Origin: Asterochloris sp. CNOR1
Lineage: Eukaryota; Chlorophyta; Trebouxiophyceae; Trebouxiales; Trebouxiaceae
Assembly: GCA_963969365.1 (NCBI GenBank)
Contig: OZ017752.1
Span: forward strand, 2,852,001 to 2,916,000
Length of the DNA stretch: 64,000 bases
Direction: 5' to 3'
The notes below the pieces were generated by a model. The model made no database searches, was not told the origin of the DNA, and worked only from the letters and a program-made list of their open reading frames with translations. Below, piece by piece: positions 211 to 63,776 of the stretch; the first letter of the stretch is position 1, and the number at the start of each line of letters is the position of its first letter. The translations under genes and the position numbers were made by a program.

Positions 211-3200
211 GGCCTGCGCACCGTGATCATCACTGACAGTGAGGAGTTGGGCACGCAGCACCTTCACGATGCTGCCAAGCACCGCGAGCTGTGGCTGTTC
301 TACCCTGATGACAACCCTGTCAGGTGGGCAGGGGCAGGGCGACCAAACTGGGTGCGGGGAGCCTGCAGGCTGTGGGGTGGGCAGGGCATGCAGCAGGAGG
401 CAGCCTGGCAGGCGCTCTGGGCAATCGCAGGCTGCCTTTGCGGGCCGCAAGGGAAACAACAGCAGTGGTTGGCCCCCTGCACTGTTTTCAAAGACCTGCG
501 CTGCATGCCGAAGCCCAGGCAGTGTACAGCAGACCTAGGCCAGGGGCCAACAGGCAGACTTGTCAGGCAGGCAGGGCAGCCCACAATGCAGCCTGCAATC
601 GTCAGCGGACAGACGGCCAGGGGGCATTGCTTTAACTGCATATGAAGGCTTTACTTCGTGAATGAAATTCATCTCGTGCTGTCGCGCCGGCCTAGCAGGG
701 CCACACTTGAGCCCTGCAAGTAGGGCTGCCTGGGAGGCAGCACTGTAGCCTGGAGGTAGTAGGAGCACTAACATTGTCTGAATGCCTGCAGGTCCCACTC
801 AACGCAGGCAGCAGCACCCCAGCGGGAGCAGGCAATGCCTCTTTCAGCATCTAAGACCTGCAGGTCTTGCTTTACAGAGAAGGGCCACCCCTGGACACAG
901 AGCATACAACTGCTTCCTGTATGCTCAAATACAACATTGATGGACCAGCCAGAGCTGAAAATTGCTTGTGCAGAGACATGTCCGGTGTACTTGCTGCTTG
1001 CAGGTCCTACCGCAATGGCAGGACAGTCACTCGCCCCCTGAGCCATGGCTGGGGCATCTGACAGCATAGCTTCTGCCTGCAGTTCAGGCCTGACTGGTCA
1101 CAACACGATGTCCACTGTTGCCTGAGGCCATCGGGTTGACTAAATGCACAGCCGCTGGCTGCAGATCTCACCCAGCAGGTGATGAAACACTCCTTGGTCC
1201 CCATCTGGAAGAGCCTCTGCTGTGACAAGTCATGTGAGGCCAGCACTGCTACCGCCTGCAGGTCCTACCTAGCCGGTGATAGCAGAGCAGCCGTGGCCCC
1301 CTTCCTGGCTCATGCCAGACTGCACCATGACAGCTACAAGTGGATGCTGTTTGGCGACGACGACACCGTTTTCTTCATTGACAACATAGCCGACTTCCTC
1401 AGCGACTTCGACCCGCAGATCCCCTACTTTATCTCTGGTGCGCAGCCTGAGCCTCAGCTCTGCAGGCTGCTGCACTCCTGAGCAGGACTGCGGGCGCCTA
1501 TGCCAATGCACGAACTCCTGAGCAGCTTTAGTGCCTGATACAAGCACTCTAGTGCCCTGTCGTGCAATGTGCTGTCGCAAGCTGCCCTTCAAGCAGTGCC
1601 CGTCATCACACATGGTGCATTGCCAGAGCATGACTTCGATCGGGTGGGCGAGGTGTCTGTCACCATGTGGCCAAACTGGTGTTCGCGCAGTGCCGTGTGG
1701 GTTCATGCCCTGCCTGCCATTGCAACTGGTGACCTGCCAGAACTCAGGCAGGTATGATTCTCCTCATCAACTGAGCAAGCTGGTGTGTGATGTGAGGTGC
1801 TGGACGTCTTGGAGGCTAGCTTTTGCAGTTGCTGCTGGATGTCAAGGGATTTTACAATGCAATATCTGGGCTCCATGACTCTGGCGCCCACCCTGGAGTA
1901 GCCTGTTGTGTTGACTGATGCAGAAATGATGTTAACTGCAGGCACCAGGAGGGCAGGGACTCCTGCTGCATCTGCTGGTGGCAGCGCTCTGAGAGTTGGG
2001 TGTCCTGCTCTGCCTGCAGACAACAACTGGTGGTCGGATCATGGGCACCAGGTAGACAAGGGGTTCCACCCCCACCCATTCTCCCCACGCTGCCGTCCTT
2101 GCCATTCCAACCTCACAGACGACGACATCCTGAGGGACTACAAGCCCCCTGTGGGCTGCCCCTGCACGCCCTACCTGCTCTGCCTGAACGACCTGCAGCT
2201 GGGGTTCAACGCCTGGTGAGCCTGAGCTGTGTTGTGGAGCTGGCTTTCATCTGGTAAATCGGAGGCACCTGGGTGCACATGGGCTGCCCACACCCACCCC
2301 AACTGCTATGCCTGATGCGACCTGCAGCTGTGGTTCAGTGACAGTGAGCCCTCAGATGTTTGTTGGCATTCCTTGTTCCTTTTGTATCATACAGCAGTCG
2401 GGCGCCTATAGGGGCCGCTCCTGCATGACTTGCCTGCTTTACCTGAGTAACTGCAGCTGGGGTTTAGTGCCTGGTATTTCTTGCTGTTAGGTTGGCAGTG
2501 GCTCTCCATGTGTGATGTTGAGAGGGAGCTGGGTGCCTGTAGAGTTCCCTGCATGCCCTACCTGATTCGCCTGGACAATCTGCTGCTGGACATCCATGTC
2601 TGATGAGTGCTATCTGGGGGTGGTGGCGCACCTATGTGGCCTTCTCATCGGGACCTGTTTGTGCACCCAGCAGTGCAGACTGAGGATTCGAAGTGACTTG
2701 ACTGCAGGTGCGACATGCCGCGAGTGCCCTTTAGGTCCTACAGCTTCCATGGAGGCGCCGGGGCCATCCTCAGCGTAGGGCTGCTCAACGCAGTTAACTA
2801 CACTGAGCTGGAGATGTGCGTCCACGCCACGAAGGCACCAGGTCAGCCACTGCCTGCTGCTGTGCATTACCTGGCAGCTCGTGTGGGCATCTGCAGGAGG
2901 TGGCAGCTGGCCAGGCAGGGATTCTCCTGCTCAGCACCCCCCTTGCTGTCCCTGTGGCAGCGCCGCGCCCTGCACTGACACAGCATCCTCTGCTTGCTTT
3001 ATGCTGCCTTGTACTGTTGGAGGGGCCCTCAGGCAGAGCTCAAGCTGCTCAGCTTATTGCTGCACGCTGCCCGCTGCCCGCTGACCTAAAGAAAGGTCAA
3101 ATCTTATTTGCCTCATGCCAGCCTCCCACCATAGATGCTGCAGCACCCATGCGTGCAGTACCTGCGCATCAGAGGCTGAAAGGCCCATCTGCTGCTGGTG

Positions 3201-6075
3201 CTGGCAAGGCACATGGGTAGGAGGCAGCCATGCTTCTCACAGGCCACAGGGAGCGGTGGCATAGTATCTGCAGTCAGGTGTGCAGCTCCCCAGCCCTCAA
3301 GAAAATGTGACTTGTGCCCTGCAGGTGGTGACTCCATGCTTCAGGTTTGCCTCTGGCAGCAGGGCTTTGCAACGACAGACCCAGGGATGGGCCTGACAGA
3401 TACAAACATCCAGATGTTTGACCCTGGCACAGAGGACCGCCAGGGGCTCATGCGGGGATGGGCTGCTGCCATGGAGGGCCGCTGCGACGCAGCCTGCCAG
3501 GTGAGCACAGCTTCTGGCCCATCGCTCAGAGCCGATGCACATAAGTGCATGAAGCAGCCTCCGTGACACTGACGCAGGTTGTCTCTGTGACTTTGCATGT
3601 GCTGAACCTCTGGCGCCATGCTGAAGACAGGGGCACTCCACATGACAGGCTTACTCAGTGTGTGCATTGCTTGCCCTGCAGGGGAAGCTCAAGCACACCC
3701 TGACGCTGCATCTCAAGTCGAGCGCCTTTGAGGTGCTGGGGTGGGCAGCAGAGTACATGAGGGCCCTCAGCCGCATGTACACGGCCTACAGGGCTTGGGT
3801 GAAGGACAATGTGAGTCTGCTGCATGCTGCTCACTTTGACGCCCTTAGAGGCATTTGAGAGCCATTGCACCACCTTGGGTGATCGCCTGTGAGTCTGCTG
3901 CATAAAATTGTTGACAGTTAAGCAGCATTGCACCCACCTCTGACCCTGCTGTGCCCTGTGTGCTAACAGTGACATGCTGAACGGGAACAGAGCCCCTAGT
4001 GCCGAGGCATTATGCGGCAGGTCTGTCGCAGCAAAGCAATCCTCCTGGGCGTCCCAGCTTTCACTGAGAACTGCCCCACTCTCTCTGACGTGAACAGCAT
4101 TGGAAGACAGCTCCAGTGCATCTGGCCTGCCAACAGCACGTCCCTGTGCTTTTGCTGAAAGGCCTGGTGCTGCAGGCGGTGATGAGTCCCAAGGACGTGG
4201 AGGCCCGCAAGGTTGCCAGGGACGCCAGCAAGGCTGAATTCACAGCCAAGGGAGTGCAGGTCAGCACCTTGCAAGTGATCGGGACTGTCCAGCTGGTTGC
4301 ACTGCTACTGCCACACCCGACATGGTTCAAATCCGCCGAGGTGCAGGTCAGCGCGTGGCAGTTATGCAGAATTGCCGTGCTGGATGCACCGCTTCTGTCA
4401 CGCCCGAGACCATTCATAGCCGCGTCAGGTGAGTGCCTGGCAAGTGAACAGCACTGCCGTACTGGATGCGTACCGCTTGTGCCATGCCTGTTACCATTCA
4501 TAGCGCCGGGGGGTCAGGTGAGTGCCTCGCAAGTGAACAGGATTGCCCAGCTAGATGCGTACCCCTTCTGCCATGCCTGTTACAATTCAGAGCCCAGGGG
4601 GTGCAGGTCAGTGCATGGCAACTAAATAGAGTTGCTCAGCTGGACATGTCATTCTTGCTCTGCCCCCAAATGTAAGACCGCTAAGGGGGTGCAGGCTTGG
4701 CTAGAGTTGCTTTGCAACCAACACTGAGCATCAGCCCTGCTCTCCCCTGGCCTCTGCTGATGGTCGGTATCATCAACGCTGCTGGCCGTGGCCATGACTG
4801 GAACTTCCTCGCCAAGCTTCAGACCAGCGCTGCCTGGCTTGGAAAGGCGCACAGCGTGTGATGCGAGTTATATTAGCAAAGGTTGACTGTCAGGTCTCTG
4901 TCGCAGACTGGGTCAGCCTGTAAAGCAGAGGAGCCTGCTCAGGCGTGGTCCTGCAGTGCACAAGGCATGCAAGGTCGACGTAAAGTCCCCGTCCACAACC
5001 AAATCCCCATCTAAGCTCTCTGTTGCTGCAGGGACCTCCTGTAGACGCTCAGCTCTGTGCCAACCTGACAATCAGTTCAGGTGTTCAGTGGTGCAGGCAT
5101 GGGCAACACAAGTAGTGATTCTCCTCGAGTGCTGTTCAGGCATGGCTGGATGCTGCGGGCGATGCACTGGCATGGGAGCAGCAGCGGCGCGACCAGTGGG
5201 CAGCCATGTCCCTCGAGCAGCGGGAGGAGCTGCGAGCCAGCCAGTGGAGCCAGATGCGGGCAGAGCAGCAGGCACGGCCACTTGCGGGGGGCAGCGCTGC
5301 CCTGGCACAGCCCCAGCATGCGGGGTGAGGGCGGTGTTGCCACTGCTGGGGTTGCAAAGGGCAAAGGGGTTGCACCACATCAGGCATGGGCGCTGGCAGG
5401 GAACAGTGCCTCTGTCGCGCAGGCTCAGCATCCAGACTGGGGGTGGAGCGGGGCACGGCGGTTGTTTGCACAGGGAAGGGGCGGGCCAGCAATCTGGGCT
5501 GCTGCCCCATTTGACTCAGTGCCAGCATGCAGTGTGAGGGCAGTCCTGTTGTGACTGGTCTGCATGACATGAAGGGGGCTGCAGCAGCAGGCAGGGGGCA
5601 GCACTGCCATGGAAGTGGCACATCATGCAGGCTGGGGGAGGTTGTGCTGCTGCTCATTCTGCAGCTAGGTGAAGTGGGGGTGCTTCAAGAGACCTGCGTT
5701 CAGCCCGCGAGGTGCAGCCGCTGGCAGGGGCAGCAATGCTGCCATGAGTCAGGCCAAGCATGCAAAATCTGGCCTGCACAGCACGGCACTGGGTAGGGGT
5801 GACATCTAAGTTTCGCCCTGAGCGTGGAATGCTGAATGTGGAGTAAAACCTGCACCATAGAGGTTGCTGGCCCTCTGCCACTGCTTCATGTTGTAGCCTT
5901 CTGCAGTCAAGCCTGTCTCCTTCTTGAGCTATTCTGTCTGCTGCTTGCAGGGGAAGCGCCAACACATGACTTCCCTGCGACCAACCCCTGTGACATGGCG
6001 GTGCTGCCCGCTCAGCGCTGGACCTCACGGCCTTTCATTCCCTGCCAAGTTGCATTGGTGCTCACACAGCCTTAA
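211..6075 (+). CDS. Fringe/DUF604-like glycosyltransferase (GT31-like), 5' partial
   Basis: Phase-matched exons: 211-323, 1262-1437, 2020-2215, 2708-2841, 3325-3500, 3682-3810, 4176-4259, 5140-5324; a likely terminal exon is 5951-6075 (TAA). The protein carries YKWMLFGDDDTVFFIDN, the DDD metal-binding motif of Fringe-type glycosyltransferases, then GGAGAILS and a Met/Leu-rich segment with GFATTDPG, as in plant DUF604 proteins. By family it should be a Golgi type-II enzyme transferring a sugar from a nucleotide-sugar; substrate unknown. The 5140-5324 exon is Gln/Arg-rich (LEQREELRASQW) and looks like a C-terminal extension. The splice phase from 5324 into 5951 does not close, so one small exon is missing or the 3' end is mis-assigned. 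The signal-anchor exon would lie before the window. Introns hold three separate arrays of junction repeats. Confidence 0.72.
785..1270 (+). repeat. Acceptor-junction echoes upstream of glycosyltransferase exon 1262
   Basis: The acceptor of the DDD exon reads cctgcag|gtcctacc at 1255-1269. Near-copies stand at about 785-800 (cctgcaggtcccac), 857-870 (acctgcaggtcttgc) and 994-1015 (cttgcaggtcctaccgcaa). The copy at 994 matches eight exon bases after the AG. Only the last site joins in frame to the previous exon and yields RSYLAGDSRAAVAPFLAHA. Confidence 0.6.
2200..2605 (+). repeat. Donor-junction echoes, about 124-bp period
   Basis: The end of exon 2020-2215 (gcctgaacgacctgcagctg ... gcctg|gtgag) recurs in degraded form at about 2312-2360, 2436-2480 and 2560-2605, a spacing near 124 bp. 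The first copies keep 'cctgcagctgtggttcagtg' and 'ctgcagctggggtttagtgc'. The later copies lose the GT donor. Confidence 0.6.
4250..4700 (+). repeat. 87-bp tandem array seeded by a splice donor
   Basis: Exon 4176-4259 ends gtgcag|gtcagc. The motif gtgcaggtcag/gtcaggtgagtg repeats at 4254, 4341, 4424, 4513, 4601 and 4689, a period of 83-89 bp. Shared interior blocks include 'gcaagtgaacag', 'ggatgcgtacc' and 'ccatgcctgttac'. Most copies retain a usable GTCAGC/GTGAGT donor. The authentic exon is the first copy, because its reading frame joins the exon at 5140. Confidence 0.8.
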
Positions 6076-6298: not shown

Positions 6299-9200
6299 TC
6301 ACAGCTCGTCCCTCGTATTATGCTGCAAAGACTCCAGCAAGTAGGAGTAGAGGGAGGCTGTTGCCAGGGCAACGTCTGGGCCATCCACATGCTCCAGCGG
6401 AGAGTGGCTGACACCGTCCCGGCACCGCACAAACAGCATGCCCACCTGCACAGACATCATGCATGTTGTTCAGGCATGTGCGCCAGGAAGATCACCATGC
6501 ATGCAAACATGCAGGATTGGGAGGGATGACTGCCTTGTGCAAGTACAGGCAGGGGTAGTCATAAGTCAGCTGCAGGCTATGGCATGTCTGCCTCCTTGAG
6601 GCACCATTCTGGCAACATATAATTTGCAGGTGCAGCTGTGGACCTATAAGTCCAGGCCATCATGCCCTGTATTGGCTTGCAACAGCATACATTGCCAAGA
6701 CTCGTACAAAGGCCCTGAGGTATAGAAGCAAAGCACATCTGAGATATGAGTCTGACCTTGGTAAGCTTGGAAAGAGGCATGGCATCGTGCCCTGCCCCAC
6801 TGGCAAGTGTTGGAACTTCCTCTGCAGGGTTGCTGTCAAGCTGCAGCGCCTGCACTTGACATTTTGCTTCCGGTGTGCAGCCACTAGATTAGGTTGCTAA
6901 GGAAGTAGCTTGGACTTAAGCAGGAGACTGTTACCAAGCTGCAGCACCTGCTGCTCAGCATCACTCTTCCCTACAAATTCATGGTGCAGCGGCCGCACAG
7001 CAGAGGTTGGCTGCAAGCTGGTCTCGAGCTTCCTACAGCATGAGTACTGGCCCCTTCGTGGTGCAGACCTGCTGTCAGGCTCTGAAACTGCTTGACAACG
7101 CAGAACTAGGGGACTGCTGGAAGCAGCAATTGGACTGCATCACAGTGCAGTCCACACACCTTGTAAGCCTGCTGTGAGGCCTTCTGAAACTGCTTGACAA
7201 TGGCTGGGTCTGCCAGCACTGTTGCGGTCTGCTGGATGACGTCAGCAGTGCACTGCACGCCGCGCCTTGCGCACAGGGCTGGCACGGCCTCAAGGAAGCT
7301 CCGCACCACTGCAGCTCGCACATCCTCCTCTTGTGACCTGCAGACCAGAAGGCAGCAGGATGTTGGACCTCAGTATGACTTGTGGGAGGTTAAGCAGTAT
7401 TCACTCTTCCACTTCAGCCCGTCGCGATGTCCCTCATGGGACCTGCACAGCTGAGATATGTTTTTGCCACAGCAAGATGTGTCCTTTGCAGGACATTTTG
7501 CTGAAGATGGTCAGCGCAGCAGCGACCTACCTGTCTTCACAACAATGCTTGCCTTTTGCCTGCCAGTTTCAGCCATTTGTATTCACATGACAATAACTGC
7601 AGCTGTCCATGGACAGGGACAGCTGCTGCCTTGGCATCAACAGTGAGGCTGGCCCAGGGATGGAGTTGACGGCCTCCAGAGTCAGAGTGAGTCTGTGGTC
7701 AACAAACTTGAAACAACAAACATGCCTGCTCCTGGACAGCAGCACGTGCTGACCTGATGTCCACAGTGAAGTTGGCAGCGCCAGGGATGACGTTGCTGGC
7801 CCCTGGCCACAACGTGAGCTGCCCCACCGTGCAGACCAGGCTGCCATCGCTCTTGGCATCTGCCGGGACCCCGTCAGCAGCCTGGCCGCTCAGGTAGCCC
7901 CCGTTGCAACGCTTCTCGAGGGTGCCCATGGCCTCGGCGGCAGCGGCCAGGGGGTCGTGCCGCAGGCGCATCGGGATGGTGCCAGCGTGGCCCTGTACCA
8001 GCAGGACAGCTTCAGGAACGCTGCAAATCCTGCACAGACCTGCGAAGGGATCATGAGCGGCGGCGATTGAGGCGCAGGACCTCAGAGCTTGTGCTGCAGG
8101 CGCATTGGGATGGGCTGTTGTGCCAGGGCCTTGCCAGCATAGCCCTGCAACAGTGGCAAGGCCCCAGCATCACGGCGCTCTGCAGAATTCAGTGTCACCC
8201 ATTACGCGGGTGCCAGTCAGGATGTCTGCCATCACGCCCAGCAGCAGTGACATCGGGAATGAAAACAGCCCTGCATGGCCACCTGGTTTACAATGCTGTG
8301 CTGCCCTTGCACAGCCCCTGTCAAGCACGTCCGCTGCCCACCTGAGTGCCCCGCATTGTCACATGGATCCGCATCTGCCCAGCAATGGCCGACACAGCTC
8401 CCAGCGGCTGCCCAGCAGCCTCAAGCACTGGTCCCTGTTCCAGATGCACCTCCAGATACTGCTTCACCTGCAAGACAATGCACAACCATTCCTTTGCTTT
8501 CCAAGGGCTTGACTGCTGTTGCAAGCGCAGCTTTCCCCTCCAGATACTCCTCCAGACAATGTTTTCAAAGGAAGTGCCTAGCTTCTTGGTGCACTCCAGG
8601 ACTCAAGTGGCTGGCATGGCTTGTGTCAGCCTTGTTCACCACCACCTATCGTCTTCCCCTCTGCAGGCTGACAGGAATGCACGACACCTTGCAATTGAGT
8701 CTCCAGGGCTTGAGCATGGCTATGTAAGACCCGCAACCCTTCAGCTGCAGATTTTTGTACCTATCGACTCGCACCACGAGAGCCAGTTCTTGAGGGCAAG
8801 ACGGTGGTGCAGAGGTGCAGCGCACGTCATGCCCGCTGCATACCTGCCGACAGAATGCAGGTGCAGGCGCACCTCCATTGCCTGCTAACATGCATGATGG
8901 CCTTAGCAAAAGCAGCGACTCAGGGTGATCAAGCTCTGCATATGGGCCAGCGATCAGTGGGCCTGCAACTGCCCAGCAGTGCAGCAAGCAATGCTGCTCT
9001 GCATGCACAAATAAACATCATTTGCAGACCCAGCTGCACAAGCGCAGGCAGCAGCCCCTGCAGCTACATGTAGACCGCCACCTTGTGCTGAGCGTGCAAG
9101 CAATCCTCGTGTATGCTGCCCAAACCTGGCTCATACGTCATTGCTGCAGATGAACACAACGCTGTTTGTCCACAAGCACCACTGCAGAGTACCAAACAAA

Positions 9201-36600: not shown

Positions 36601-39600
36601 TCGATATGCTGATGCAATGGCCATCAATTCCCATCCCCCAACGAGCGATGCCCTTGATGGCACACATATGCTGCCCCACCTGTAGCACCTGGCCATCGTC
36701 TCGTCGTACAGCTTGGAGTCGCAGTTGATTACCACCGACAGATCCTTTGCCCCCAGGGGAGCCCCCTCGGCAGCGCAGCCTCTATATCTGACGGGCACCT
36801 GCTGCATCTTGGGCACCTCAATCACACTGGGTCTGCCATCGGTGGGCTTGGCTGCCCTGACTGCCCCTTCAGCCACTGCAGCCTTCAGTAGGCTGCAGAT
36901 CATGGCCTCCTTCTTCTGCAGCCATGCAGTGCACACGGCTGCAGCGGCCCTGGCAGGACAGCACGAAGCCTTGGTGCAGCCAGGCGGTGCCACGGGCGGG
37001 GCATGTGCTCACCTTGAGCACGCCAATCGCTCACAGATGCACCACTGCAGAAGAGCTGGCAAGAGCAGGGAGCTGGTGGTTCCCGCCGGCACTGTCAGCT
37101 GCTCTGGCCATGGCCAATTCTGGAGGAGGGCTTCCATGGCAGCAGACCCCTGCCACTGTCGTGAGGCATGGCAATTGCTGCGGGACGCCATGCAAAGGAT
37201 GGCAGGACACTCACTGCGCCAGGCGGCCACTCTATGTCGCCAATCTACAGTGTAGATTGATTGGGCATGGCAATTGCTGCAGGACACCATGCAAAGGATG
37301 GCAGGACACTCACCGTGCCAGGCGGGCAGTCCAACGCGCCAATCTCCCTGACCATTGCAATCTGCATTGCAGGGGATGGGCTGTCAGCGGCTACACATGC
37401 TACTATGTGTGAAGCAAATGGCCACGGCACAGAGTACGACAACAGCACCCCCTGCAATGAGTAACATCTGGAGTGGTCTTTGTTCCATCATTTGCACATG
37501 GCATGAGCTCAGGGGCCGTGGCGGGCAGAGCTTGTGTGTCAGCACTGCAGAGGTGTCCCTTTCGATGACCTGCTGGGCCAGCCTGTGCCCCAAGAATGGC
37601 ATGAGGTGCAAGATGCCAAGATGGGCAGTCCTAAAAGAAGAGCAGGTTGCTACCTGCTGTGAGGGGCTTGAGCAAGTCCCTGTGACAACTTGTGGTCTGT
37701 CTCGTTTGTGGACTGTGATCAAACCTTCTGCCTTGCGAGTGACCTGTGCCGCGCATGGTACCTGCTATGCGGGGCTGAGAGAGCAGCCTGCCTGTGGAAC
37801 CTGCTGCAGGGGGCTTATGGTTGAGAGGGCCCTGTGCACCACCACTCCTGTTGCAGCTGTCTGCTACACCATTGCACATACCGTGATGATTTTTGGTCGC
37901 CCCAGTGTCAGACCTGTCACAACCCAGCCACGCAAGTCTCAGCCCCGGTGAGCTGCCTTGCAGCAAGTAGTGTACCTGCTGTGACGGGCTGAGGCGCGCC
38001 AGCAGGCTCATGTTGGTCTCGGGCATGTCCCTCTTGACAATCTTGACGCTTTGGTACAGGCGGTCCAGCTCTGCCCTGGCCTGCCTGCAGATCTCCCCTG
38101 TTTTGGGCGCGTCCTCCGCTGCAGCAAGAGAGGACATGTGGTTCAAAGAGGTGCACAATCTAGCCAGCTGGAAGATCTCCTGCCTGCTGGGCGCGTCTTC
38201 AGCTGCAGCAGGGAGGTCAAGAGGTTAGTGAGGGATGTTGAGGGATGTGCAAGCAATTTTCAATCCTCACCTGCAGCAGGGCAGGCAGCCCAACATTGAC
38301 AAACACTATGAGTACCAGCACATTGGCATGCCGCTGCCATCGTGCATGCCGCTGCAGACGTCCGTTCATGAGCACGCCCTTGGCGGCAACATGGCAGGCA
38401 GGAGACTTGTCAAGGCAGGGACACACTCCAGCTTGCAGGTAGATCTCTCCATCAATGGGGGCACCTCCAGCTGCAGTGGGACAGGCAGTCCATCAATGTT
38501 GAGTCCGGGCAGTGCCAGCATGTCGGCAGGTGTGCATGGTATTGCAGCCTGGCAGCAGATGTTTCCTTTGCTTGGTGCAACCTCGACCGCAGCATGGTCA
38601 TGCTTTGGCATGCCAAGACACAGGAACAAAGTCCTGCTTGCAGCTGGCGCATGTCATAGAAGTATGTTGGTGACCAAGTAAGTGAACAGGCTACCTATGG
38701 GCTAGCAGGGCTATCAAGCAAGCAGGCGCAGATTCATAAGCTTAGCTGTCGCCAATGCAGTTGCCTTGCGCTGCATGGTGACAGGATTGAGTACACTGCC
38801 CACCAGCTAGCAGGCATGATCAAGCAGAAACCAGCAGACGTGGGAGCCTGGCTTGCTTGCCCAGATGCAGTCGCCCCACAGCATGGTGACAGAAAAGAGT
38901 GCAGACACTGCCCATTGGCCAGCAGTCAAGTTCCAGTTGTGCAATTGCCGATGGCGCAGTGGCATGTGCAGGTCGGATGTCTGTCAAACGTGCAGTGGGT
39001 AGAACCCCAGCTTGCCTGCTGCCGGTGCGGTCGCCTCGCGCAGCATTGCCATGAAGAAGCTGTTAGGATTGTTTAGGGTGGTGGCGCGCAGCGTGGCCAG
39101 GTACTTGGTCACAACCTGCGGGTGCAGGACAGCTTTCTTGCAGATTCCTGAGGAAGATGGGGGGTGCAGGCAGATGTGCAGGTAGCAGCCTGCTGTCTAG
39201 GTGGTGGCCAGGTTTTTCTGAAGCTCCTTCACAACCTGCAGGTGATTCCAGAGGCTTTGAGGACGTTTGGTGTGCAAAGTTTCAGAAGCATGCGCGGGCA
39301 GTCTGCCGGCACACAACTATATGTGGGTGACAGTCAGTGTGCACAATTGGCTGAACAAGCCAGACAGTCAGACACAGCCCATCTGCACAATCCGGAGGTG
39401 GTAAGTGCAGGTGGCACTTGACTGCACAAGCCTGCAGCTGTGATGACAAATGTTGGCGGCCGTCACATTGACCTGCACCCTGCCGGAGAGGACAGCGAGA
39501 TGCCTTCAGCATGCACTGCTGCTTCACAAGGCGGTCTGCCGCGGCAGACAGTCCAAGACCATCTGCTGAGGTCTTGGGTGCTCCCGGACTGTACCTGGCA

Positions 39601-41555
39601 CGCCCTCGGAGATGTGATCAGGTGCTGCTGTGGCTCGCAGCCGACCAGTGCTGTGCTTGAGCAGCAGCTCACACATACCTTGTCGACTGCAAACAGCATG
39701 ATGACCATCAGGTCGTACTGTTGCAGCGAAGCACCACATGATGAATCTCAGCTTCACAGTGTCAGGTAATGTGTGCATAGCTGCAGCCACCCACTTGCAC
39801 TCCATCGGCGGTCACACATGCACATGGGCCAGAGGTGCTTGCGCGCTCCAGTGTGGGCTGCACATTGCTGTGGAGGCCCTCACCTTCACTTGGCTGTCCG
39901 CTGACAGCTTGGCCAGGTGGGAGATGCAGGCATCATCCAGGCCATGAGTCTCGGCCTTGAGCAGTTTTGCAGCTTTCTTCGCAATCAGGTCCAGCGGAGA
40001 AGTGCTTTCCTCAGCGTTCTGCAGCACAGCGCATGGACAAGTTCACCTAAGCAGATTCGCAGCTTTCTTTGCAATCAGGTCCAGCGGAGAGGTGCTTCCC
40101 TCAGGGTCCTGAAGCACAGCGCATGACAGCTTCAGTTTGAGCGGGGTTCTCAGGTGGCTTTGCAGACAGCCCAAATGGTGAGATGCTCCCTGTTCAGCAT
40201 GTTGCACATCAGGGGACTGTCCTGAAGATGCTGGCCAGAGCAGATTGCTGGCTTCACTAGCAGGTCAACGTCGTCCTGCAGCACATTGCAGGAAAAACAC
40301 ATGCCAACTCTGCATGGTCAGGTCGGCACCCAAATATTCTGGGCAGGTTCAGAAAGAAAGCCCTTCCTTGCTCAATGGTCTGCAGCACAGCTGCTGCCAA
40401 GGTGTCAGTGGGCCTGGGGCGCTGACTGAGCTGCTCCTTGTTGTATTCAGAACAGAGGCGCATCTCTGCTGGGCACATTTGCACTTGGTGCAGCAAAAGC
40501 CAGCCAGGGCAAAGTGCTCAGGCTCAGCAGTTGCGCAGTACACTGCGCGCTTTGAGAAGTGTGTTGGTGCAGATGGCATTGCCTTGTCCCAGGCAGGCTC
40601 AGCGGGTGGCGATCCCCTGCTCATACTCTTGCGTGATAATGCAAGGCAGGGATCCATTCTTGCCAAAGTCAAACTTGGCTGTCTGCAAACACATGACAGC
40701 CAAATGACATTGAGTTGCTCTCAGGAGGTCCAGCATGGCAGTTGGTGAGGTTACAACAAATAGTCACTGCCCCGTCAGGCTGCCGAAGGTAATGGCAGTC
40801 GCGACTGATTCCTACTGGCACCATGCCCAGAATTGTAATAGGTGGCACATCTCTTAATGACAGGCAGATACCATGATCAAGCATCTGCAGTGCGGCAGCA
40901 GCTCACCCTGAGGAGGTACATCATGTAGGCCGATGGGTTGTTCAGGACATGCTTGTCCTCCCGCCTGGCAAAGTCTCGCAGCGCGTGCAGCTGGGCCTCA
41001 TCGCTGAAGTGGGGCAGTGCCTCACGGCACCTGCAGAAACATGGCAGCGCTGGGTGAGGTGCCAGGCCGCACTTGCCACTCAAGCGCCCTTTTGAGGCCC
41101 ACCTCCAAGCTGTAAGCGCAGCTTGGGCCTCATTCGTGAGCTAGGGCATTGCCCTGTACCACCTGCAGGCATCCAGATTCCTTTTTCCTGGGCTGCTGCT
41201 GAGCTGGCAGCACAACACCTCAAACCACATGGCTGGTATGGGTCATGGCCTCTCGGCACCTGCAGTGACCTCGCAAGGGTAAGGAGGCTGCAGCAGCCCA
41301 CAAGAAAGCGTTGGCGTGGGGGCAGCTGTGCCAACCAGGCCAGGGCGCCTCATGCTGCTGAACAAGTGTTGTGCTGTGAAGCACACAGCGCCTGCCATGC
41401 CAGAGGACTTGATCAGATATGACAAGTATTGGTTTATGCCTGCGCACTGGACCCGACAGCCAGGCACTGACAATCATTGAGCTGCAGCATGCTGCCAAGG
41501 CCCACCTGTGATCAAAGTCGTCCTTGCTGATGTAACCCTCCCGAATCAACCTGGC
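30611..41555 (-). CDS. Multi-module helical protein (NPSAYM-type, hnRNP Q acidic-domain-like), start not found
   Basis: Fourteen exons close in phase to 739 codons including stop: 41555-41506, 41030-40907, 40018-39884, 39115-39016, 38118-37976, 37361-37314, 36915-36680, 35258-35126, 34513-34357, 34128-33715, 33343-33234, 32401-32291, 31437-31278, 30906-30611. At least four helical units follow the pattern 'L..L....Q...L..F.......NPSAYM..L', with NNPSAYMMYLLR, NNPNSFFMAMLREA, KKEAMICSLLKAA and HCPSAYIITSLAMV. This resembles the acidic domain of hnRNP Q/R-type RNA-binding proteins. A 34128-33715 exon opens DFPPLG and runs into an Ala/Thr/Glu-rich disordered linker. Two introns (38119-39015 and 34129-34356) use GC donors. 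No RRM or catalytic motif was found. The start Met must lie above 41555. Function is inferred, not shown. Confidence 0.62.
31410..31750 (-). repeat. Acceptor-junction echoes, about 105-bp period
   Basis: The acceptor of exon 31437-31278 (plus text ttgaaggtgcgcagggagtc, then cagggtctgcagcagcacag) recurs at about 31519-31560, 31627-31672 and 31717-31745. Copies keep 'gaaggtgcacagg' and 'cctgcagcagcacagcag'. Similarity falls with distance. Confidence 0.8.
32375..32775 (-). repeat. Acceptor-junction echoes, about 170-bp period
   Basis: The acceptor of exon 32401-32291 (plus ggtacagctcttgcagcaca, then gcctcagcctgtag) recurs at about 32567-32605 (ggtgcagctcctccagtaca, then gcaccagcctgcag) and 32735-32770 (ggtgcagctctttcagcaca, then gccctagccagaagg). 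Confidence 0.75.
33109..33179. repeat. 25-bp inverted repeat (long hairpin) in an intron
   Basis: Arms 33109-33133 and 33155-33179 pair over 25 bp with one mismatch around a 21-base loop. The outer ends are tgtgaccc/gggtcaca. A decayed relative (gtgacccat ... gtgttgctt) lies at 33066-33094. It sits in the intron 32402-33233 of the multi-module gene, so a nascent minus-strand transcript would fold it. Confidence 0.85.
35225..35465 (-). repeat. Acceptor-junction echoes before exon 35258
   Basis: Plus text cttcatgtaggcgggcccca, then cgccatgcctgcag (exon edge and acceptor of the GVGPAYMKSLSV exon), recurs at about 35330-35360 (cttcattcaggttggcccca) and 35427-35462 (gttcatgcaagcaggcccca, then taccacccgtgcctgcag). 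Period about 95 bp. Confidence 0.75.
37165..37362 (-). repeat. Tandem pair carrying a donor junction, with central palindrome
   Basis: A unit of about 97 bp occurs twice, at about 37167-37240 and 37264-37345, sharing 'ggcatggcaattgctgc', 'ccatgcaaaggatggcagga' and 'cactcac'. The second copy includes the authentic donor of exon 37361-37314. A perfect 19-base palindrome, caatctacagtgtagattg, lies between them at 37241-37259. Confidence 0.85.
37640..38000 (-). repeat. Donor-junction echoes after exon 38118-37976
   Basis: Plus text gtgtacctgctgtgacgggc, then tgaggcgcg, at the real donor (about 37970) recurs at about 37649 (gctacctgctgtgaggggct), 37758 (ggtacctgctatgcggggct) and 37797 (gaacctgctgcagggggct). 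These are echoes of the LARLSPSQQ exon end plus its GTACAC donor. Confidence 0.7.
38080..39250 (-). repeat. Intron 38119-39015 built from echoes of both its ends
   Basis: Acceptor side: gatctcccctgttttgggcg, then cgtcctccgctgcag, at the exon edge is echoed at about 38174 (gatctcctgcctgctgggcg), 38447 (gatctctccatcaatggggg) and 38562 (gatgtttcctttgcttggtg), each followed by a c(t/g)gcag. Donor side: ggtgcggtcgcctcgcgcag, then cattgcc, is echoed at about 38756 (atgcagttgccttgcgctgc) and 38864 (atgcagtcgccccacagc). The acceptor of the upstream exon 39115 (acttggtcacaacctgcggg) also has an echo near 39228 (tccttcacaacctgcagg). Confidence 0.72.
39955..40140 (-). repeat. Partial exon duplication upstream of exon 40018
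   Basis: About 65 bp of exon 40018-39884 and its acceptor (plus gcagctttcttcgcaatcag, then gtccagcggagaagtgctt) is duplicated at about 40050-40120 (gcagctttctttgcaatcag, then gtccagcggagaggtgctt) with few differences. The copy could still encode STSPLDLIAKKAA. It looks recent compared with other echoes. Confidence 0.88.
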
Positions 41556-55197: not shown

Positions 55198-58100
55198 ATG
55201 CCAGCCCTGTCAGCACCTCTGAACATTGCAGACATGAAGTGGCAGCAGATCCTGGCGCTGCATGAGACGCACACCAAGAAGCAGGTGACCTCTCCTGCTG
55301 CTGTTGGCACAGCACATGAGCATTGTAAATGCGCCACACACTGTAGTCCCTTTCTAAGATTGCCTCTCATTGCATTGCCCTATGTGCTGTAGCCCTGTTC
55401 CAGTCTGCCTCTAGGCATTTGCTCACTATTCAGGTGCACAGCCTTTGCTGAGGGCCTGCTGCAGGCAATTCAAGCCTGCTGGCAGTTTGTGTTGCTCGCA
55501 ACAGCAGGACCTATACACCTGCCTCTGGATATCTCCATCAGGCTGTCGCAGTCAGCTCTCCTGCTGCACGCCAACCCCCAATACTGGATTGTTAGCCCAT
55601 GCAAAGGAGGCACAGGTCGTTGCAGTATTTCCACTACAGGTGGTAGCTGTAAGCCGCCTCAAGTCTCCACTCTGTCGTGTGGGCTGTGGCCCAGTCTCAA
55701 GACCTATGAGTCCTACCTTGGGGGTGCTAAATTTTTCAGGCGTGTGTCTTCATGCTGCCAGGGTTCTGTGTAACTTGTCCTGCTAACACTGCGACCTCTG
55801 CTGCTGCAGGCAGATGACCTGAACGGGGCAGACCTGGCCACGCCCATGTGCGTACTCTTTCTGACATCATGTGTGTTTTGCCCTGCTGATGCCATAATCT
55901 CTGCTGATGCAGGCCGCCACCCCGGCAGGGTCACTGCTCACCCGTCCAGGCGCAGACCTTGCCGAGTCTGAGTATGTCAGGGCGGTCAAGCTGGGCAATC
56001 AAGCGAGCCGGCTGGCGCGAGACGAGCAGCAGGATCTCGTCAATCACCCCCTGTGGCGCCTGACCTGTGGGGCTCTGACTGCTGGCCTGTACCTTGCCCA
56101 CTGTGTAGCTGGCACTCTGCAGCCCAGGTAAGCACACAGACCGTCAACATGACAATTGCACCCTGTAGTGCTTGGGCTCCCAGGAAGAAAGAAGATAGCA
56201 GTGCAGTCTGGCCATGTATGCTGCCAGTGTTGGTTTGACATGCTGCACTAAAAGCAAGTCAAAGAAGGTCAGACCAGCTCATGCTGCATCAAGACGCTGG
56301 ATGGCCAGGAACTAGGAGAGCTTGCACAGGACTGGCACAGCAGCCCCTGAAGGCGGCTGCAGCCTTCACTGCCCTGCCACCTCCCACTGCTGGATGCCCA
56401 ACTGAAAGCTCATTGGCCCTGCTGCAGTGTCAAGGAGAGCTTTGCCTCAAGTGGAACCGCTGCAGCCCCTGCAGGCGCCAGCAGCCCTCAGCGCCCTGCC
56501 TCTCCCCTGGACGGCGTAGCCATTGCTGATGGTGACCGGCCCACACGGGAAGCTACGGCTCACAGTGCCCTGGCAGCCCAGACAGGGGAGCAGCCCCGCC
56601 TGACTGAGCAGGAGGTGGGTCCACTGAGATGGATTGTTCACCAGGCTGGGTTATGCAGCTGGCATGCTGCATGCAACCTGCTGAATGGAAAGCACTTGAC
56701 AACTCACAGAGGACATTGACAAGTGGGGTGGACATCTCTCATTGTCTTAGTCGGCATGTAATGCAGCCTGTGGCGTAGCAACTGCCAGCAAAGCAGCTAC
56801 GCTCAGAACCAACTCAAGCAAGGCTCTTACAGGCCAAGAAGAGTCATGAGAAGCCAGCAGCATACTCCTCAATCTGGCAGAATAGCCTGGTGTTGCAGGC
56901 AGAGATGATTTTACAGGCCCCAAGAGAGCAAAGCATTGGGTTGCATATGTTCGGCAAGACGTGACTCTGCATCCTGCAGGCGGCGGTGGGTCTGGTGTAA
57001 GGGCTCAATAGAGAAAGAGACATGAGAATGCTGTGAGGTGCGTATCTGCTTCCTGCAGGCCAAGGTTACGGCTGCGGCCAATTCTCTCAAGGAACAGGGG
57101 AATGCGGCCTACAAGGCCAAGAAGTACTCAGAGGCCTTTGCCTTCTACCATGCCTCGGCGGAGCTCTGGGACCGGGATGTCGCAGTTGTCACCAACATGT
57201 GAGCTGCTCCTGTGCTTGGCCGCTGGATGCACCCGAGCCTGATGTCATCAACATGTGAGCTGCCACTGCTCTTGCCTCTGGTTTGATTGGAGCCTGAGGG
57301 GTCAAGCACTTGCCTGCCACGATGCCGCGAGCGACAGTGGCAACCAGGACATCTGTGTTTCAAAAAGGTGCAGAGGCTGCAGCCGCAGTCACACTCAGCA
57401 TTTCATGCATGCACAGAGTGCTTGAGATAGCCCCTTGTGGCTGCAAGGCGCTTACTTGCTAAAATTCCGCCCATCTTGTTGCTTACAGATGTGTGACATT
57501 ACTGCAAGGATGCTCAATGCACCTGCAGGGCGGCAGTCATGTTCCAGCTCAGGAACTTCAGCGACTGTGTTGACTTCTGTGACATCGCACTCACGAGGGG
57601 GCCTGGCCTCGCAGCGGCGCCGCAGCTGCTGGCAAGGGCTGCCACCCGCAAGGAGAAGGCACTTGTGGAGCTGAGGAGGCCCCAGGAGGCGCTAGGCGCC
57701 TTGCAGAGGAGCCTAGACTTGCAGTGGTGAGTTACGGGTGCAGCCCTCGAGGGTTTGAGGGCACACCCCAGCAGCAGATGCTTTGTTGTGGGGGGCTGCA
57801 GGCAGGCAGGCTTGCAAGGTTTCACTGCTGTGCTGGCTGCTGGCCAGGCTCAGAGTGCAACCTTCAATATGCGTGCTCTCTCCGCATTGGTGAGGCAGCT
57901 GAAAGTGGCAGCCTGTGGGCAGCAGTGCTGCTGTGAGTGGCTGCTGGGCGCTCTGTGCAGGGCTGTCATGCGTTGATGGCCCCAGCGGAGGCTCCGATGC
58001 GTTGCTGACTGCCTTGCTGGCTGCGCAGCCCTCAGTCGCTGAGGGGTCCTTGGCTGCAATCTCACGCACTCTGGAGATGCCTGAAAGGCAAGCAGCACAA

Positions 58101-60037: not shown

Positions 60038-63000
60038 TCAGACAGTGGCCAGCTTCCTGAATTTGATGCGGGAGGGATCTTTGTTACCAGACCTCTGCCG
60101 CCAGTCTGCTTCATACTCACTGTAGCTGCCATCAAACCAATGCACTTTGCTGTCGCCCTCAAAAGCTAAGATGTGGGTGGCCAGTCGGTCAAGGAACCAC
60201 CTACAGGCAACAGCAGCAAGACTGTATGCGACTCACTGCAGGCAACAGGCCTCAAGCAACTAGGTAAAGTGCACAATCTTGGCAGATCTGGCTGCAGCTC
60301 AATATCAGGGGTGCAGGCCAAGCACCAGCACACCTGTCATGAGAGATCACAAGCACGGTCCCTGCCCAGTTTGAGATGGCCTCCTCCAGAGCTCTGAGCG
60401 TCTGCAGGGACAAGAATCTGCCTCAGCATTGCAGTATGGCTTCTTATTATGGCAGCAGACAATGCTGTCCAATTCATGCTATGATGTTGACAAGCTTGAC
60501 GGCTCACCTGAACATCAAGATCATTCCTGCAGCGCAGAGACGCAAACTAAGGGGTAGCTCAGCAGACTGGGTGATGGTTGTGTGTGAGCTGGGCCTGACA
60601 AGCAGTGGTGCAACGTCAGCTTGCATCTTATGGCATCAAGCGTGACTCACGTGGGCTCGTCTAGAAGCAGGAGGTTGCCGGACTGCTTCAGCACCTGCAG
60701 CACCACTTGCGACTCAAGACAAGCCTCAACCGTCAAGCAGCTGGCAGTGGTGGTTGCCAGACCCCAGACGGCAGCAGGTTGTCCCTGCAGTGTTGTCAAT
60801 GACAGGAACCTGCCGCCACATCACAGGCAGAAACCAGGCAAGAGCATGGCAGTGAGCCCACGGCTGCAGCGCTTGGCCCACCATTACAAGGTGCCACAAG
60901 TTGAGCGGCCTGTCAGACCGGAGATGATGCGCCACGATGCCCAGGCCTCAGCATTGCTGTACGCTCAGCCCACCTTGGCAAGGTGAAGCCTGTTGCGCTC
61001 GCCGCCAGAGAGCACCTCAACCTTCTTCTGCTGATCTGCTCCTGTGAAGTTATACCTGCATCATCAAAAAAACAGGGACACCTTGCACTGGGGGTGGTGC
61101 AGGCTCCAAAAGAAGTAATGTGTGCAGCACGAGTCCTATGTGTCAGCTGCCCATCAGTTTGATTTAGCTGCCAAGCAGCCAGTAGCACAGATGAAGGTGT
61201 AGGGCCCTGAGTAGCAACCTTCTGCCAGGCTGTCGCCTGCTCAAGACTGACCCCACAATCTGCCAAAAGCCTGGGTCTCCACATAATGGTGGAGCCGCTG
61301 CTGGTCAGCTCGCTGCTTGTTGTTTGCCAGCACTGAAAGAGCAACTCTTGCAAGATCTGACAGACTCACCAGGAGCAGTACTGCCTGATGTTGACAATCC
61401 GTTTGCCAATCTGAATTTCTTCCGCGCCATCTGCAATCTCGTCAACCACCAACCTGCAGCAGTAGCAGTGCACCACCTCAGGTTAAGCACTCTTTCCTGG
61501 TCACTGCTTGCAGTTGGCAAGAAGCACAGTGGCACTCTTCAGTGCGCTGGAGCACATATTCTGTATCTGTGCCACCACCTTCTGTGTTTGTCTTTGATTT
61601 GCAGGCTTGATGCAGCAGGCAGCAGACTGCCATTCACATGGACGGGACAGTGGACGCACCGCCAGACCTGCTGTTGGCTTGCAGGAAGCCAGAAAGCAAC
61701 TTGGTTTCAGTAGGAGGCTGACCATCCTTCTTGCAAAGCAGACAAAGCTTCACCTGCTGCCGTCTCCAAGGCTGCCGCGACTCTGATCAACATACATGGG
61801 TACGACTGTCTCGCCCAGCGTGACTGTGCCGGAGTCGGGTTGTTCCTGGCCCATCAGCATCCTGAAGAGGGTAGACTTGCCAGCACCATTGCTACCGATG
61901 ATGCCTGCACCCAGGGAAATATCAAGGTGGACTGGCTGCCAGCAGGGTATGATAGTGCTCTCCATGGCATTCCAGAAGCTGATCAGGCTGCATCTGCAGC
62001 GTCAACAGCCAGAGACCAGCGGGAAATGCAGGTCTCTGGTGATGCAAATGCAGCACTGCCATCTGAGGCTGCCATCCTGCAGCTGCTTGCCCCACATGAC
62101 TGTCCTGACACAAGCTCAGCAAGCATGCTGCCAGCAGAAACCAGCCAAGAACTCCATGCGCTCTGCATGGCAGTCTCACACCTCATCCAGGATCTCCTGC
62201 TCCAGCTCATCCATGAGGAGGCTGTGCTAGGGCTGTGTGCTGACAGACTGGGGTGCCCAGATGATGAGCGTGTCCATGAGCAGGTACACAGGCAGTGCAG
62301 CACCTCACCCTGCCTGATACCATCCACAGCATCACCATCAGCACAACTCACCCACGACGCTGCCAGCCGGGATATCCAGGTTGACCTGGTCCATGAGCAG
62401 GCGGTCGCCGTAGGACTTGCACACGCTGTCGAGGTGGATTACCTCATTTCCCAGGCGCGGCCCCTGGGGGATGGTGATCGAATCCAGGGATGAGTTCTCC
62501 TCAAACTGGGCAGCCTGCACACGCGGAGCAGGCGGCATGACAGACTGTGTGGCACTGTGCAAGGCCCAAAAGATCAGAGCAGGCAGGCTGTCTCTGCAGG
62601 CAGTTCGTGGGATGTTGTGGGATGACGATTCTGAGGATGTGGTTCCACAGATTGACGATGGCGGTTAGGGGTGCAAGGTCTTGACTGGGAGGCCTGCAGG
62701 TAGGCAGCCATTGATGGCAGGAGAGAAGGGTGATAATCCGACAAGGGGGGGAGCAACCGCCAGATGCTGCCCCACACCATTTGCTACTGACCTGCTCAGT
62801 GAGGTGTTAAAGCGCACCATGCGCCGAAGACTCTCTAAGGCATTCACATTGAGGACTTTTACCACTCCCCAGACGCAGCAATGACCCTACTCAGCCACCC
62901 AGAGGATCTCACAGTGCCGCATGTGCTCCAGACTCTATCAGGCATTCAGCTTAAGGATCTTCACCACTCCTCAGTAGCAGTGACCCAACACTGCCACTCA

Positions 63001-63776
63001 CCTGCTCAGTGAGGTCTTCGTAGCGCCGCATGCGAGCCTTGCCCTTCTTTTGCTGCCCCTTGGCATTGGAGCGCACCCACTCCAGCTCGTTGGCAAGGCT
63101 CCTCTGCAGGGAGGCCTGCTGGCGGGACTCTGACTGCAAGCAGAGCAGCTAGGTGTCGGATCGCTGACAGTCTGAGCTGCAACTGGTACATGATGGCTGG
63201 CATGCTTCTGTAGCCGATGTCAGCCGGGAGAGCTTTGCGATAGGATGTGCTGCATGCAGCAGCACTGCTGCCTAGGGGTGTAGTGGGAGCTTGTAGGCGT
63301 GTGCTCCTGCTTTTCAATTTCCGGCATACAGAGCCGTGGGTGGGCTGGGGCTGGAAGTGCAGGGGTGTTTCTCCAGATGATGGTGCTGCTTGATGTGGCC
63401 TGTGCAGTATGCAGCAGCACAGCTTCTCACAGGACTGACTGGCAAGCATGACCAGCTGCTTGTGCTGCTGCTTCTGCCAAGCCAGCAGTTGCAAAGGCTG
63501 CCTGCTGTTGTGCTCTGCCTCATGCAGAAGGCATCGGCGCTCTCTGTTTGCTACAATGACTAGCACCAAAGCCCCTGATGCAGAGCAAGACCTAGCACTG
63601 CTGGCCAGGCAGGTACGAAAGCTCCCCCCTCTTGGTGCGCAATGTCAGCGGGGTACCCTTTCTCTCCCTTCTCTTTGTACCAACAAAAGGAAGCAGAAGC
63701 TGAATGCCCACCTCCATGCGCTTTGCCTTGGCCTCCAGCCAGGAGCTGTAGTTGCCCTCATGTGGCAGGCCCTGAC
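60038..63776 (-). CDS. ettA: EttA-like ABC-F ATPase (translation factor), N-terminus outside window
   Basis: Ten phase-closed exons: 63776-63712, 63133-63002, 62514-62352, 61904-61754, 61453-61370, 61055-60974, 60694-60651, 60526-60508, 60401-60334, 60200-60038. They cover the end of ABC domain 1 and all of domain 2: [16 protein letters not shown] linker, [31 protein letters not shown] (Walker A), [13 protein letters not shown] (signature), [13 protein letters not shown] (Walker B) and [15 protein letters not shown] (H-switch), ending KFRKLATV. This order and wording match bacterial EttA, which gates the ribosomal E site according to ATP/ADP. In an alga it is probably plastid-targeted, which cannot be judged without the N-terminus. 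The Walker B and NDLDV residues are split over 44- and 19-nt exons. Confidence 0.95.
62205..62425 (-). repeat. Echoes of an ABC-F exon segment in its downstream intron
   Basis: Plus text ggtccatgagcaggcggtcg (inside exon 62514-62352) has look-alikes at about 62271 (gtgtccatgagcaggtacac) and 62208 (ctcatccatgaggaggctgt), about 62-118 bp away in the next intron. Confidence 0.5.
62785..63030 (-). repeat. Donor-junction echoes, about 105-bp period, in the ABC-F gene
   Basis: The donor of exon 63133-63002 (plus cactcacctgctcagtgagg, then tcttcgtagcgccgcatgcg) is echoed at about 62788-62830 (gacctgctcagtgaggtgtt, then aaagcgcaccatgcgcc) and 62885-62925 (cctactcagccacccagagg, then atctcacagtgccgcatg). 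Shared spacers 'aggcattcacattgaggact' and 'aggcattcagcttaaggatc' link the units. Confidence 0.8.

What the first reader, a model, noticed from the sequence alone, without database searches (positions are those of the whole stretch)
785..63030. Splice-junction 'echo' arrays: exon edges plus splice sites tandemly repeated into adjoining introns
In at least seven of the ten main genes, a block spanning an exon-intron boundary is repeated one to five times in the adjacent intron at about 55-170 bp spacing. Donor echoes lie downstream, acceptor echoes upstream, and divergence rises with distance from the real exon. Tandem duplication seeded at splice junctions would lengthen introns while leaving rows of decoy sites. 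I know of no standard element type that fits: these are neither introner elements (which insert whole introns) nor ordinary random minisatellites.
Basis: partly seen in the sequence, partly recalled or inferred. Interest (0 to 1): 0.82.

Follow-up and report, generated by a model that had tools for sequence, protein, structure and literature searches.

The report
Tandem-duplicated exon edges inside algal introns
In this probably green-algal genome roughly one intron in eight of those examined holds an old, decaying tandem copy of the edge of its own neighbouring exon with its splice site; the copies are real, but they look mostly like ordinary short tandem duplications that survive because they do not change the protein, rather than a new kind of splice-site element.

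Summary
With a self-trained gene finder on 341 kb (window, 30 kinase loci, 18 sampled 10-kb loci), exon edges match their own intron far above controls: 35 donor and 41 acceptor hits at score >=36 against 0.4 and 0 with foreign introns. 76 of 589 introns carry an echo. Sampled loci replicate it at a lower rate than the window. Generic CTGCAG does not explain it.

Local repeats (lag 75-200) overlap a junction in 23 of 44 cases against 18.7 with shifted annotation; all 84 repeats, 42 against 32. The intron-interior share is below or near that of randomly placed duplications, depending on assumed ages. Divergence does not consistently rise with distance; most decoys are weaker than the real sites.

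Two features are non-random: unit size peaks at 80-135 bp, and the copied block rarely enters the exon beyond 60 bp (12 of 71; simulation 52%).

Best explanation: background ~100-bp tandem duplication filtered by selection on coding and splicing, lengthening introns. Precedents: internal gene duplication and a potato duplication crossing an intron-exon boundary. Junction-anchored duplication is neither shown nor excluded.

The parts
2152..2607 (+). donor-echo array: exon edge block 2152-2208 (exon 2020-2215) repeated at 2280-2337, 2412-2475 and 2547-2607 (lags 128, 259, 387)
   Evidence: identity 0.81, 0.77, 0.75
3794..3905 (+). donor echo of exon 3682-3810, lag 80
   Evidence: (score 36)
4238..4644 (+). 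donor-echo array, unit about 87-89 bp, beginning in the last ~20 bp of exon 4176-4259; the strongest array of the window
   Evidence: score 209 at lag 87; score 60 at lag 258; no other genomic place returned for 4424-4621
5266..5475 (+). donor echo of exon 5140-5324, lag about 112
   Evidence: z 6.2, identity 0.65
   Evidence: score 27, 0 of 300 foreign mosaics as high
7068..7200 (-). donor echo of exon 7160-7337, lag 100-102
   Evidence: identity 0.91
7917..8139 (-). acceptor echo of exon 7754-7992, lag about 135
31412..31668 (-). acceptor-echo array of exon 31294-31437, lags 108 and 215
37165..37345 (-). donor echo of exon 37314-37361, 99-bp tandem unit, 88% identical
   Evidence: no other genomic place returned
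39960..40134 (-). acceptor echo of exon 39884-40018, 90-bp tandem unit, 87% identical
   Evidence: no other genomic place returned for 39960-40125
40987..41168 (-). acceptor echo of exon 40907-41030, lag about 132
   Evidence: z 5.9
56340..56500 (+). acceptor echo of exon 56428-56614, lag 122
   Evidence: identity 0.85
57187..57298 (+). donor echo of exon 57059-57198, lag 56
   Evidence: score 43
62781..63034 (-). donor echo of exon 63002-63133, lag 211
   Evidence: score 42

Best explanation
The echoes are decaying remains of ordinary short tandem duplications (unit mostly 80-135 bp) that arise locally in the genome. A duplication that overlaps a splice junction is tolerated when the copy nearest the exon keeps being spliced, because the extra copy then becomes intron; one lying wholly in an exon damages the protein and is lost. 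Exons (~110 bp) and introns (~250 bp) are hardly longer than the unit, so a large share of tolerated duplications must span a junction, and the exon copy, held by selection on the protein, keeps the match visible. The effect is intron growth from the edges, leaving mostly weaker decoy sites. Duplications that copy more than ~60 bp of exon are depleted, most simply because such copies are more likely to be recognised as exon. Shown: the repeats, their frequency in the 341 kb examined, their junction overlap near the random level, the exon-depth limit and the size peak. Inferred: the duplication chemistry (for example fill-in repair of staggered breaks), the selective cause of the exon-depth limit, and which copy is spliced.
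For: Exon-edge/intron similarity far above foreign-intron, reverse-complement, exon-interior and far-exon-end controls. Repeats overlap junctions about as often as, or mildly more often than, under shifted annotation. Intron-interior duplications are present (20 of 91 at lag 75-185) and near the share expected for random placement when ages 0.15-0.5 are assumed (17.1); 22% observed vs 26% simulated (window plus sampled loci 28.6% vs 27.9%). Donor and acceptor sides are equal (37 and 34). Repeats with both copies in exon are at the null level (5 vs about 4; 2 of 44). Three arrays returned no other genomic place. Real splice sites usually outscore the echo (echo as strong in 5 of 37 donors and 4 of 34 acceptors). 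Gene models hold where tested: the limit-dextrinase model aligns over 1-709 with solved limit dextrinases (E about 4e-187), and echoes abut Pfam-matched kinase exons.
Against: When ages from zero upward are assumed, the simulations expect more interior duplications than seen: 35% against 8 of 40, 30.0 against 20 of 91 (P 0.015), 30.8 against 20 of 91 (P 0.009). The exon-depth limit (12 of 71 reach >=60 bp, 52% expected, P 1e-9) and the lag peak do not follow from purely random placement and need an added cause, which I have not shown. After allowing for that limit, shallow junction-spanning duplications are about twice as common relative to interior ones as the simulation gives (my arithmetic: 59 to 20 against about 1.35 to 1); this rests on the age model, and ages 0.2-0.4 reverse the sign (9.6 interior expected, 20 seen). 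No purging of decoy sites was seen: GT intact in 22 of 32 echoes and AG in 30 of 41, against 59% and 57% for flanking dinucleotides. Copies reaching >=45 bp into the exon do not differ from shallower ones in splice-site loss (P 0.62), which does not favour the selective reading.
Confidence: 0.7

Rival explanations
1. Junction-anchored duplication: something about splice junctions (co-transcriptional nicks, R-loops, nucleosome phasing, microhomology in CAG|G) makes ~100-bp tandem duplications centred near the junction.
For: The copied block rarely enters the exon beyond 60 bp on either side; lags of junction-spanning repeats peak at 80-135 while interior ones show no obvious peak; a deficit of interior duplications under ages from zero; all 84 repeats overlap junctions mildly more than shifted. 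Of the three window arrays with a unit of 89-99 bp, two include an exon edge and the third continues an array that begins at one.
Against: Junction overlap at lag 75-200 is not clearly above shifted expectation; interior duplications occur near the random rate under the middle age model and in the window plus sampled loci; the intron-side profile fits random placement.
Confidence: 0.15
2. Intron gain by tandem duplication of an AGGT-containing exon segment (Rogers model): introns themselves are duplicated exon, so exon edges resemble them.
For: Three introns show a repeat lag equal to the intron length within 1 bp (window 5325-5630, L047 5280-5357, L048 9618-9950).
Against: The class joining both exons is near its null (11 vs 6.0), one flanking exon is weak in each of the three, and the far end of the exon does not match the intron. 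Most echoes lie mid-intron; in the introns with both a donor and an acceptor echo that I looked at (L018, L027, L029) these are separate pieces.
Confidence: 0.05
3. Functional decoys: echoes are kept for alternative splicing or splicing regulation.
For: GT and AG of echoes are intact somewhat more often than flanking dinucleotides (22 of 32; 30 of 41), though alignment ends bias this.
Against: Echo splice sites are usually much weaker than the real ones; most identities of 0.7-0.85 look like decay.
Confidence: 0.05
4. Artefact: generic CTGCAG/CAGGTGAG consensus and low-complexity sequence.
For: The acceptor consensus is strong (T, G and C at 92, 93 and 97% before AG).
Against: Foreign introns, with own splice-site ends kept, give 0.4 and 0 hits where own introns give 35 and 41; homology runs 30-80 bp into the exon in most of the best cases.
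Confidence: 0.02

Closest known systems
Internal gene duplication (Gao & Lynch 2009, PNAS; recalled, not held; cited in passages of PMC4974935 and the reference list of PMC3443670)
   Same: Partial tandem duplication inside genes, including pieces that cross exon-intron boundaries.
   Different: Here the units are short (~100 bp), old, and seem to leave the mRNA unchanged, lengthening the intron rather than creating one; visible in 76 of 589 introns.
Potato RdRp tandem duplication crossing an intron-exon boundary (PMC4974935, passages seen)
   Different: There a new intron was gained; here the copy simply becomes intron.
Intron gain by duplication of AGGT (Rogers, Hellsten; PMC3443670 passages; Drosophila cases in PMC2891723 passages)
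   Same: Tandem duplication carrying splice-site-like sequence.
   Different: Unit here spans an existing junction and is mostly shorter than the intron; the intron-length-lag class is near null.
Small tandem duplications from break repair (PMC8355091, passages seen)
   Same: Short local direct duplications with no mobile element; described there as the most common short (<100 bp) insertions in the human genome.
   Different: That work is on mammalian cells; no mechanism was tested here.
Introner elements (PMC9860276, search listing and start of abstract only)
   Same: Repetitive sequence linked with introns.
   Different: Introners are dispersed families; the three echo arrays searched returned no second genomic place.

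Membership tests
Internal tandem gene duplication | two copies of one gene segment near each other in direct orientation | tested here: met
   alignments; 35 donor + 41 acceptor hits vs 0.4 + 0 null; reverse orientation at background
Internal tandem gene duplication | local origin, not dispersed | tested here: met
   3 of 3 arrays searched returned only their own place in the 56-Mb genome; other arrays not searched; the search skips very common words
Internal tandem gene duplication | strict head-to-tail adjacency (homology length equals lag) | tested here: inconclusive
   near lag length in two young arrays (82 of 99 and 86 of about 90 bp); older ones shorter, by decay or by spacers
Introner / introner-like element | many similar introns at different loci | tested here: not met
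   only three arrays searched
Intron gain by AGGT duplication | repeat lag equals intron length, exon edges flank the new intron | tested here: not met
   class joining both exons 11 vs null 6.0; three of the 11 have lag equal to intron length and stay open
   23 of 44 vs 18.7 +/- 3.3 (113 of 1000 shifts as high); all repeats 42 of 84 vs 32.0 +/- 5.0 (23 of 1000)
Functional decoy splice sites | used or conserved in transcripts | not testable with these tools
   no RNA-seq; no relatives of this genome held

The most novel reading that the evidence does not exclude
A junction-centred duplication process with a characteristic ~100-bp unit reaching mostly no more than ~60 bp into the exon is a major source of intron growth in this lineage: introns extend from both ends by copying their own exon edges, so much of present intron length consists of successive decayed junction copies.
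Probability: 0.15. Interest if true: 0.7.

Novelty: new variant of a known kind. Interest (0 to 1): 0.42.

Why it matters
It gives a concrete, countable source of intron length in a compact genome that need not involve transposons: tandem duplications that cost little at the protein level because splicing hides them. The exon copy acts as a preserved reference, so the decay of each duplication can be read against it. The limit on how much exon may be copied, if selective, would measure in nature how much exon sequence a pseudo-exon needs before the spliceosome mistakes it for real; if mutational, it would point to a splice-junction hotspot for duplication.

Tried and rejected
A first gene-finder parameter set gave thousands of tiny exons and a second failed on a matrix-length error; one search is the first working version and the final one. 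BLAST self-hits miss lags under 50, I think because of its diagonal rule (recalled), so a purpose-written self-alignment was used. The null (mosaics of 40-bp intron pieces) gave hits of its own, probably through redrawn pieces, and was replaced by whole foreign introns.

Rejected: CTGCAG consensus artefact; whole-exon duplication, since the far end of the exon does not match; inverted repeats; introners for the three arrays searched; strong decoys as a rule. Mixed: seeding at junctions. The junction/interior ratio depends on assumed ages: 20 of 91 interior observed against 30.8 (P 0.009), 17.1 or 9.6 expected under three age ranges; no range was formally fitted. The middle one matches the intron-side extent (KS P 0.90); the identity spectrum lies between the first and the second. 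I therefore do not lean on this ratio. Rows left out: 30 of 737 introns for length outside 60-1200 bp, a further 118 of 707 for exons under 30 bp; one search used introns >=100 bp with exons >=40 bp and skipped the longest introns for want of 100 longer foreign ones; the classes joining both exons or lying in exons were left out of the depth and ratio tests.

Paper searches listed no report, by title and abstract start, of exon-edge echoes as a general source of intron length; this covers only the open-licence library, those words and the rows listed.

Full report
SETTING. The window is G000:C7:2852001-2916000 of a 56.4-Mb, 21-contig genome; window G+C is 54-60% in 2-kb steps. No annotation or relative is held. 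I wrote a small generalised HMM gene finder and trained it on Pfam-matched kinase exons and window exons; after iteration it gives 806 exons and 737 introns in 341 kb, median exon 108 bp, median intron 246 bp (first working run, donor CAG|GTGAGC, acceptor CTGCAG|G). The DNA is the window, 30 kinase loci (L002-L031) and 18 ten-kb stretches taken at round coordinates on different contigs (L032-L049). Of ten predicted window proteins, 5 matched Pfam clearly (peptidase M20, 1-Cys peroxiredoxin, pullulanase-type debranching enzyme, MFS, ABC), one matched TPR below cut-off and four matched nothing. The debranching protein aligns over residues 1-709 with solved limit dextrinases (E 4e-187), so the exon joins there are right to first order. 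The finder fuses neighbouring genes, so gene counts are approximate.

THE REPEATS ARE REAL. Ungapped local repeats of the window number 33 at score >=16, against 0 and 1 in two shuffles. Gapped local repeats at score >=44 number 53 in 261 kb against 0 in one Markov simulation. TRF finds three window arrays with unit 89-99 bp, at 4424-4621, 37165-37345 and 39960-40125; the last two include an exon edge and the first continues an array that begins at the exon edge 4238-4259. Taking 40 bp of exon plus 12 bp of intron as query and ranking the own intron against 100 foreign introns, the own intron beats all of them in 8 of 66 donor and 7 of 65 acceptor cases in the window, 14 of 124 and 22 of 122 in the kinase loci, and 16 of 248 and 18 of 243 in the sampled loci (6.5% and 7.4%, lower than the window's 12.1% and 10.8%); reverse-complement controls give 0 of 66, 0 of 65, 0 of 124, 1 of 122, 3 of 248 and 2 of 243. 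In the earlier run exon interiors and the far end of the exon stay near background (rank <=0.02 in 1.4, 3.2 and 1.6%) against 12.3% for donor edges and 11.4% for acceptor edges; intron middles and inner flanks are slightly self-similar too (3.6-4.5%). Self-alignment of exon + intron + exon, up to three hits per intron, gives 35 donor and 41 acceptor hits at score >=36 where foreign introns give 0.4 and 0. The alignments often run through the junction and 30-80 bp into the exon, also beside Pfam-matched kinase exons. Counting introns, 76 of 589 (13%) carry an echo at score >=30, null about 1.

DETAILS THAT DO NOT HOLD. By the exon-edge query 72 of 84 arrays are single echoes (an undercount of copies: the five-copy array at 4238-4644 is not among the 12 multi-echo arrays), and identity falls with distance in 6, rises in 5 and is mixed in 1 of those 12. 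Echo sites are mostly weaker than the real ones: the best echo donor within 5 bp is as strong in 5 of 37, the acceptor in 4 of 34. Neither purging nor special retention of decoys is clear.

ARE JUNCTIONS THE SEED? Of 44 repeat pairs with lag 75-200, 23 overlap a junction; with circularly shifted annotation 18.7 +/- 3.3 (113 of 1000 shifts as high). For lag <75 it is 5 of 17 against 5.3; for all 84 pairs 42 against 32.0 +/- 5.0 (23 of 1000). I also simulated tandem duplications placed at random along exon-intron-exon units, with events wholly in an exon forbidden, intron decay, and the same detection. A first run expected 35% interior events where 8 of 40 were seen. At lag 75-200 on the larger set the interior share was 16 of 65 against about 21 expected (P about 0.1); at lag 75-185, 20 of 91 against 30.0 (P 0.015) and against 30.8 (P 0.009), 17.1 (P 0.82) or 9.6 (P 0.9996, so an interior excess) under three age ranges. 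The middle range reproduces the intron-side extent of the matches (KS P 0.90; the others 4e-6 and 0.005); the identity spectrum lies between the first two. Random placement is thus adequate under some age models and short of interior events under others; a junction bias of up to about twofold is not excluded.

WHAT RANDOM PLACEMENT DOES NOT EXPLAIN. First, the unit size: junction-spanning lags pile up at 80-135 bp although detection in the simulation is about as good at 125-250. Second, exon depth: the homologous block reaches >=60 bp into the exon in 12 of 71 events, simulation 52% (P 1.3e-9); 6 of 44 with both exons well scored; 4 of 36 in the kinase loci; 8 of 35 in window plus sampled loci (P 2.6e-4); the same on donor and acceptor side (medians 39 and 38 bp). 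The identity profile at the lag falls to background by about 75 bp into the exon, while the intron side follows the simulation. Faster exon evolution in the simulation does not remove it. Echo-bearing exons are longer, not shorter, than average (174 vs 112), so exon length is not the limit; gene-finder confidence may contribute to that length difference.

MECHANISM. I take the arrays as survivors of short tandem duplication. Spanning a donor, the first copy is still used and the second becomes intron; spanning an acceptor, the last is used and the first becomes intron; wholly in an exon, the protein changes and the event is lost (both-in-exon repeats 5 vs about 4 in the null; 2 of 44). The exon copy stays put while the intron copy decays, so the pair stays visible longer than an intron-intron pair. 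Which copy is spliced was not observed. The depth limit fits the idea that a copy with more than about 50-60 bp of exon is more easily taken for an exon (recalled: very short exons are poorly recognised); but copies reaching >=45 bp and shallower ones do not differ in splice-site loss (P 0.62), so this is inference. Break-repair fill-in is a known source of small tandem duplications (PMC8355091, passages), not tested here.

COMPARISON. Potato RdRp shows a tandem duplication crossing an intron-exon boundary, with a gained intron (PMC4974935, passages). Tandem duplication of exonic AGGT is an accepted route of intron gain (PMC3443670, passages; PMC2891723, passages). Gao & Lynch 2009 (not held; recalled and cited in those papers) report common internal duplications. 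The present case differs in outcome (the intron lengthens and the mRNA is presumably unchanged) and in the depth limit; whether its frequency is unusual could not be tested. I saw no report of that among the rows listed by nine searches of the open-licence library.

LIMITS. No RNA-seq, no relatives, own gene models, 341 kb of 56 Mb, of which 97 kb was chosen for kinases; thresholds, lag ranges and the 60-bp cut were chosen during the work, and the depth effect was first seen and then tested on subsets of the same data.

Noticed in passing
window 15792-15988: Minisatellites (42-bp unit, 97% matches; then 18/36-bp units) just inside the intron after a peroxiredoxin exon; intronic in my gene model, not a junction echo.
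   Followed up: partly
window 43290-52038 (minus): Limit-dextrinase gene; no junction echo at score >=36 was found in its introns.
   Followed up: partly
G000:C19:10167-10916 (L002): A protein kinase with nearly its whole domain in one long open frame (713 aa), at about 10 kb of its contig, unlike the exon-split kinases elsewhere; retrogene, intron loss or foreign DNA.
   Followed up: no
737 predicted introns: Predicted intron lengths look two-humped (70-100 bp and about 220-250 bp). This may be biology or false short introns of the gene finder.
   Followed up: no
L047 5280-5357, L048 9618-9950, window 5325-5630: Repeat lag equals the intron length, the signature expected of intron gain by duplication; one flanking exon weak in each, and the class is near the null level.
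   Followed up: partly
L034 6.6-8.3 kb; L035 3.0-3.6 kb: Several local repeats at different lags close together, where gene models are doubtful; possibly larger internally duplicated genes.
   Followed up: no
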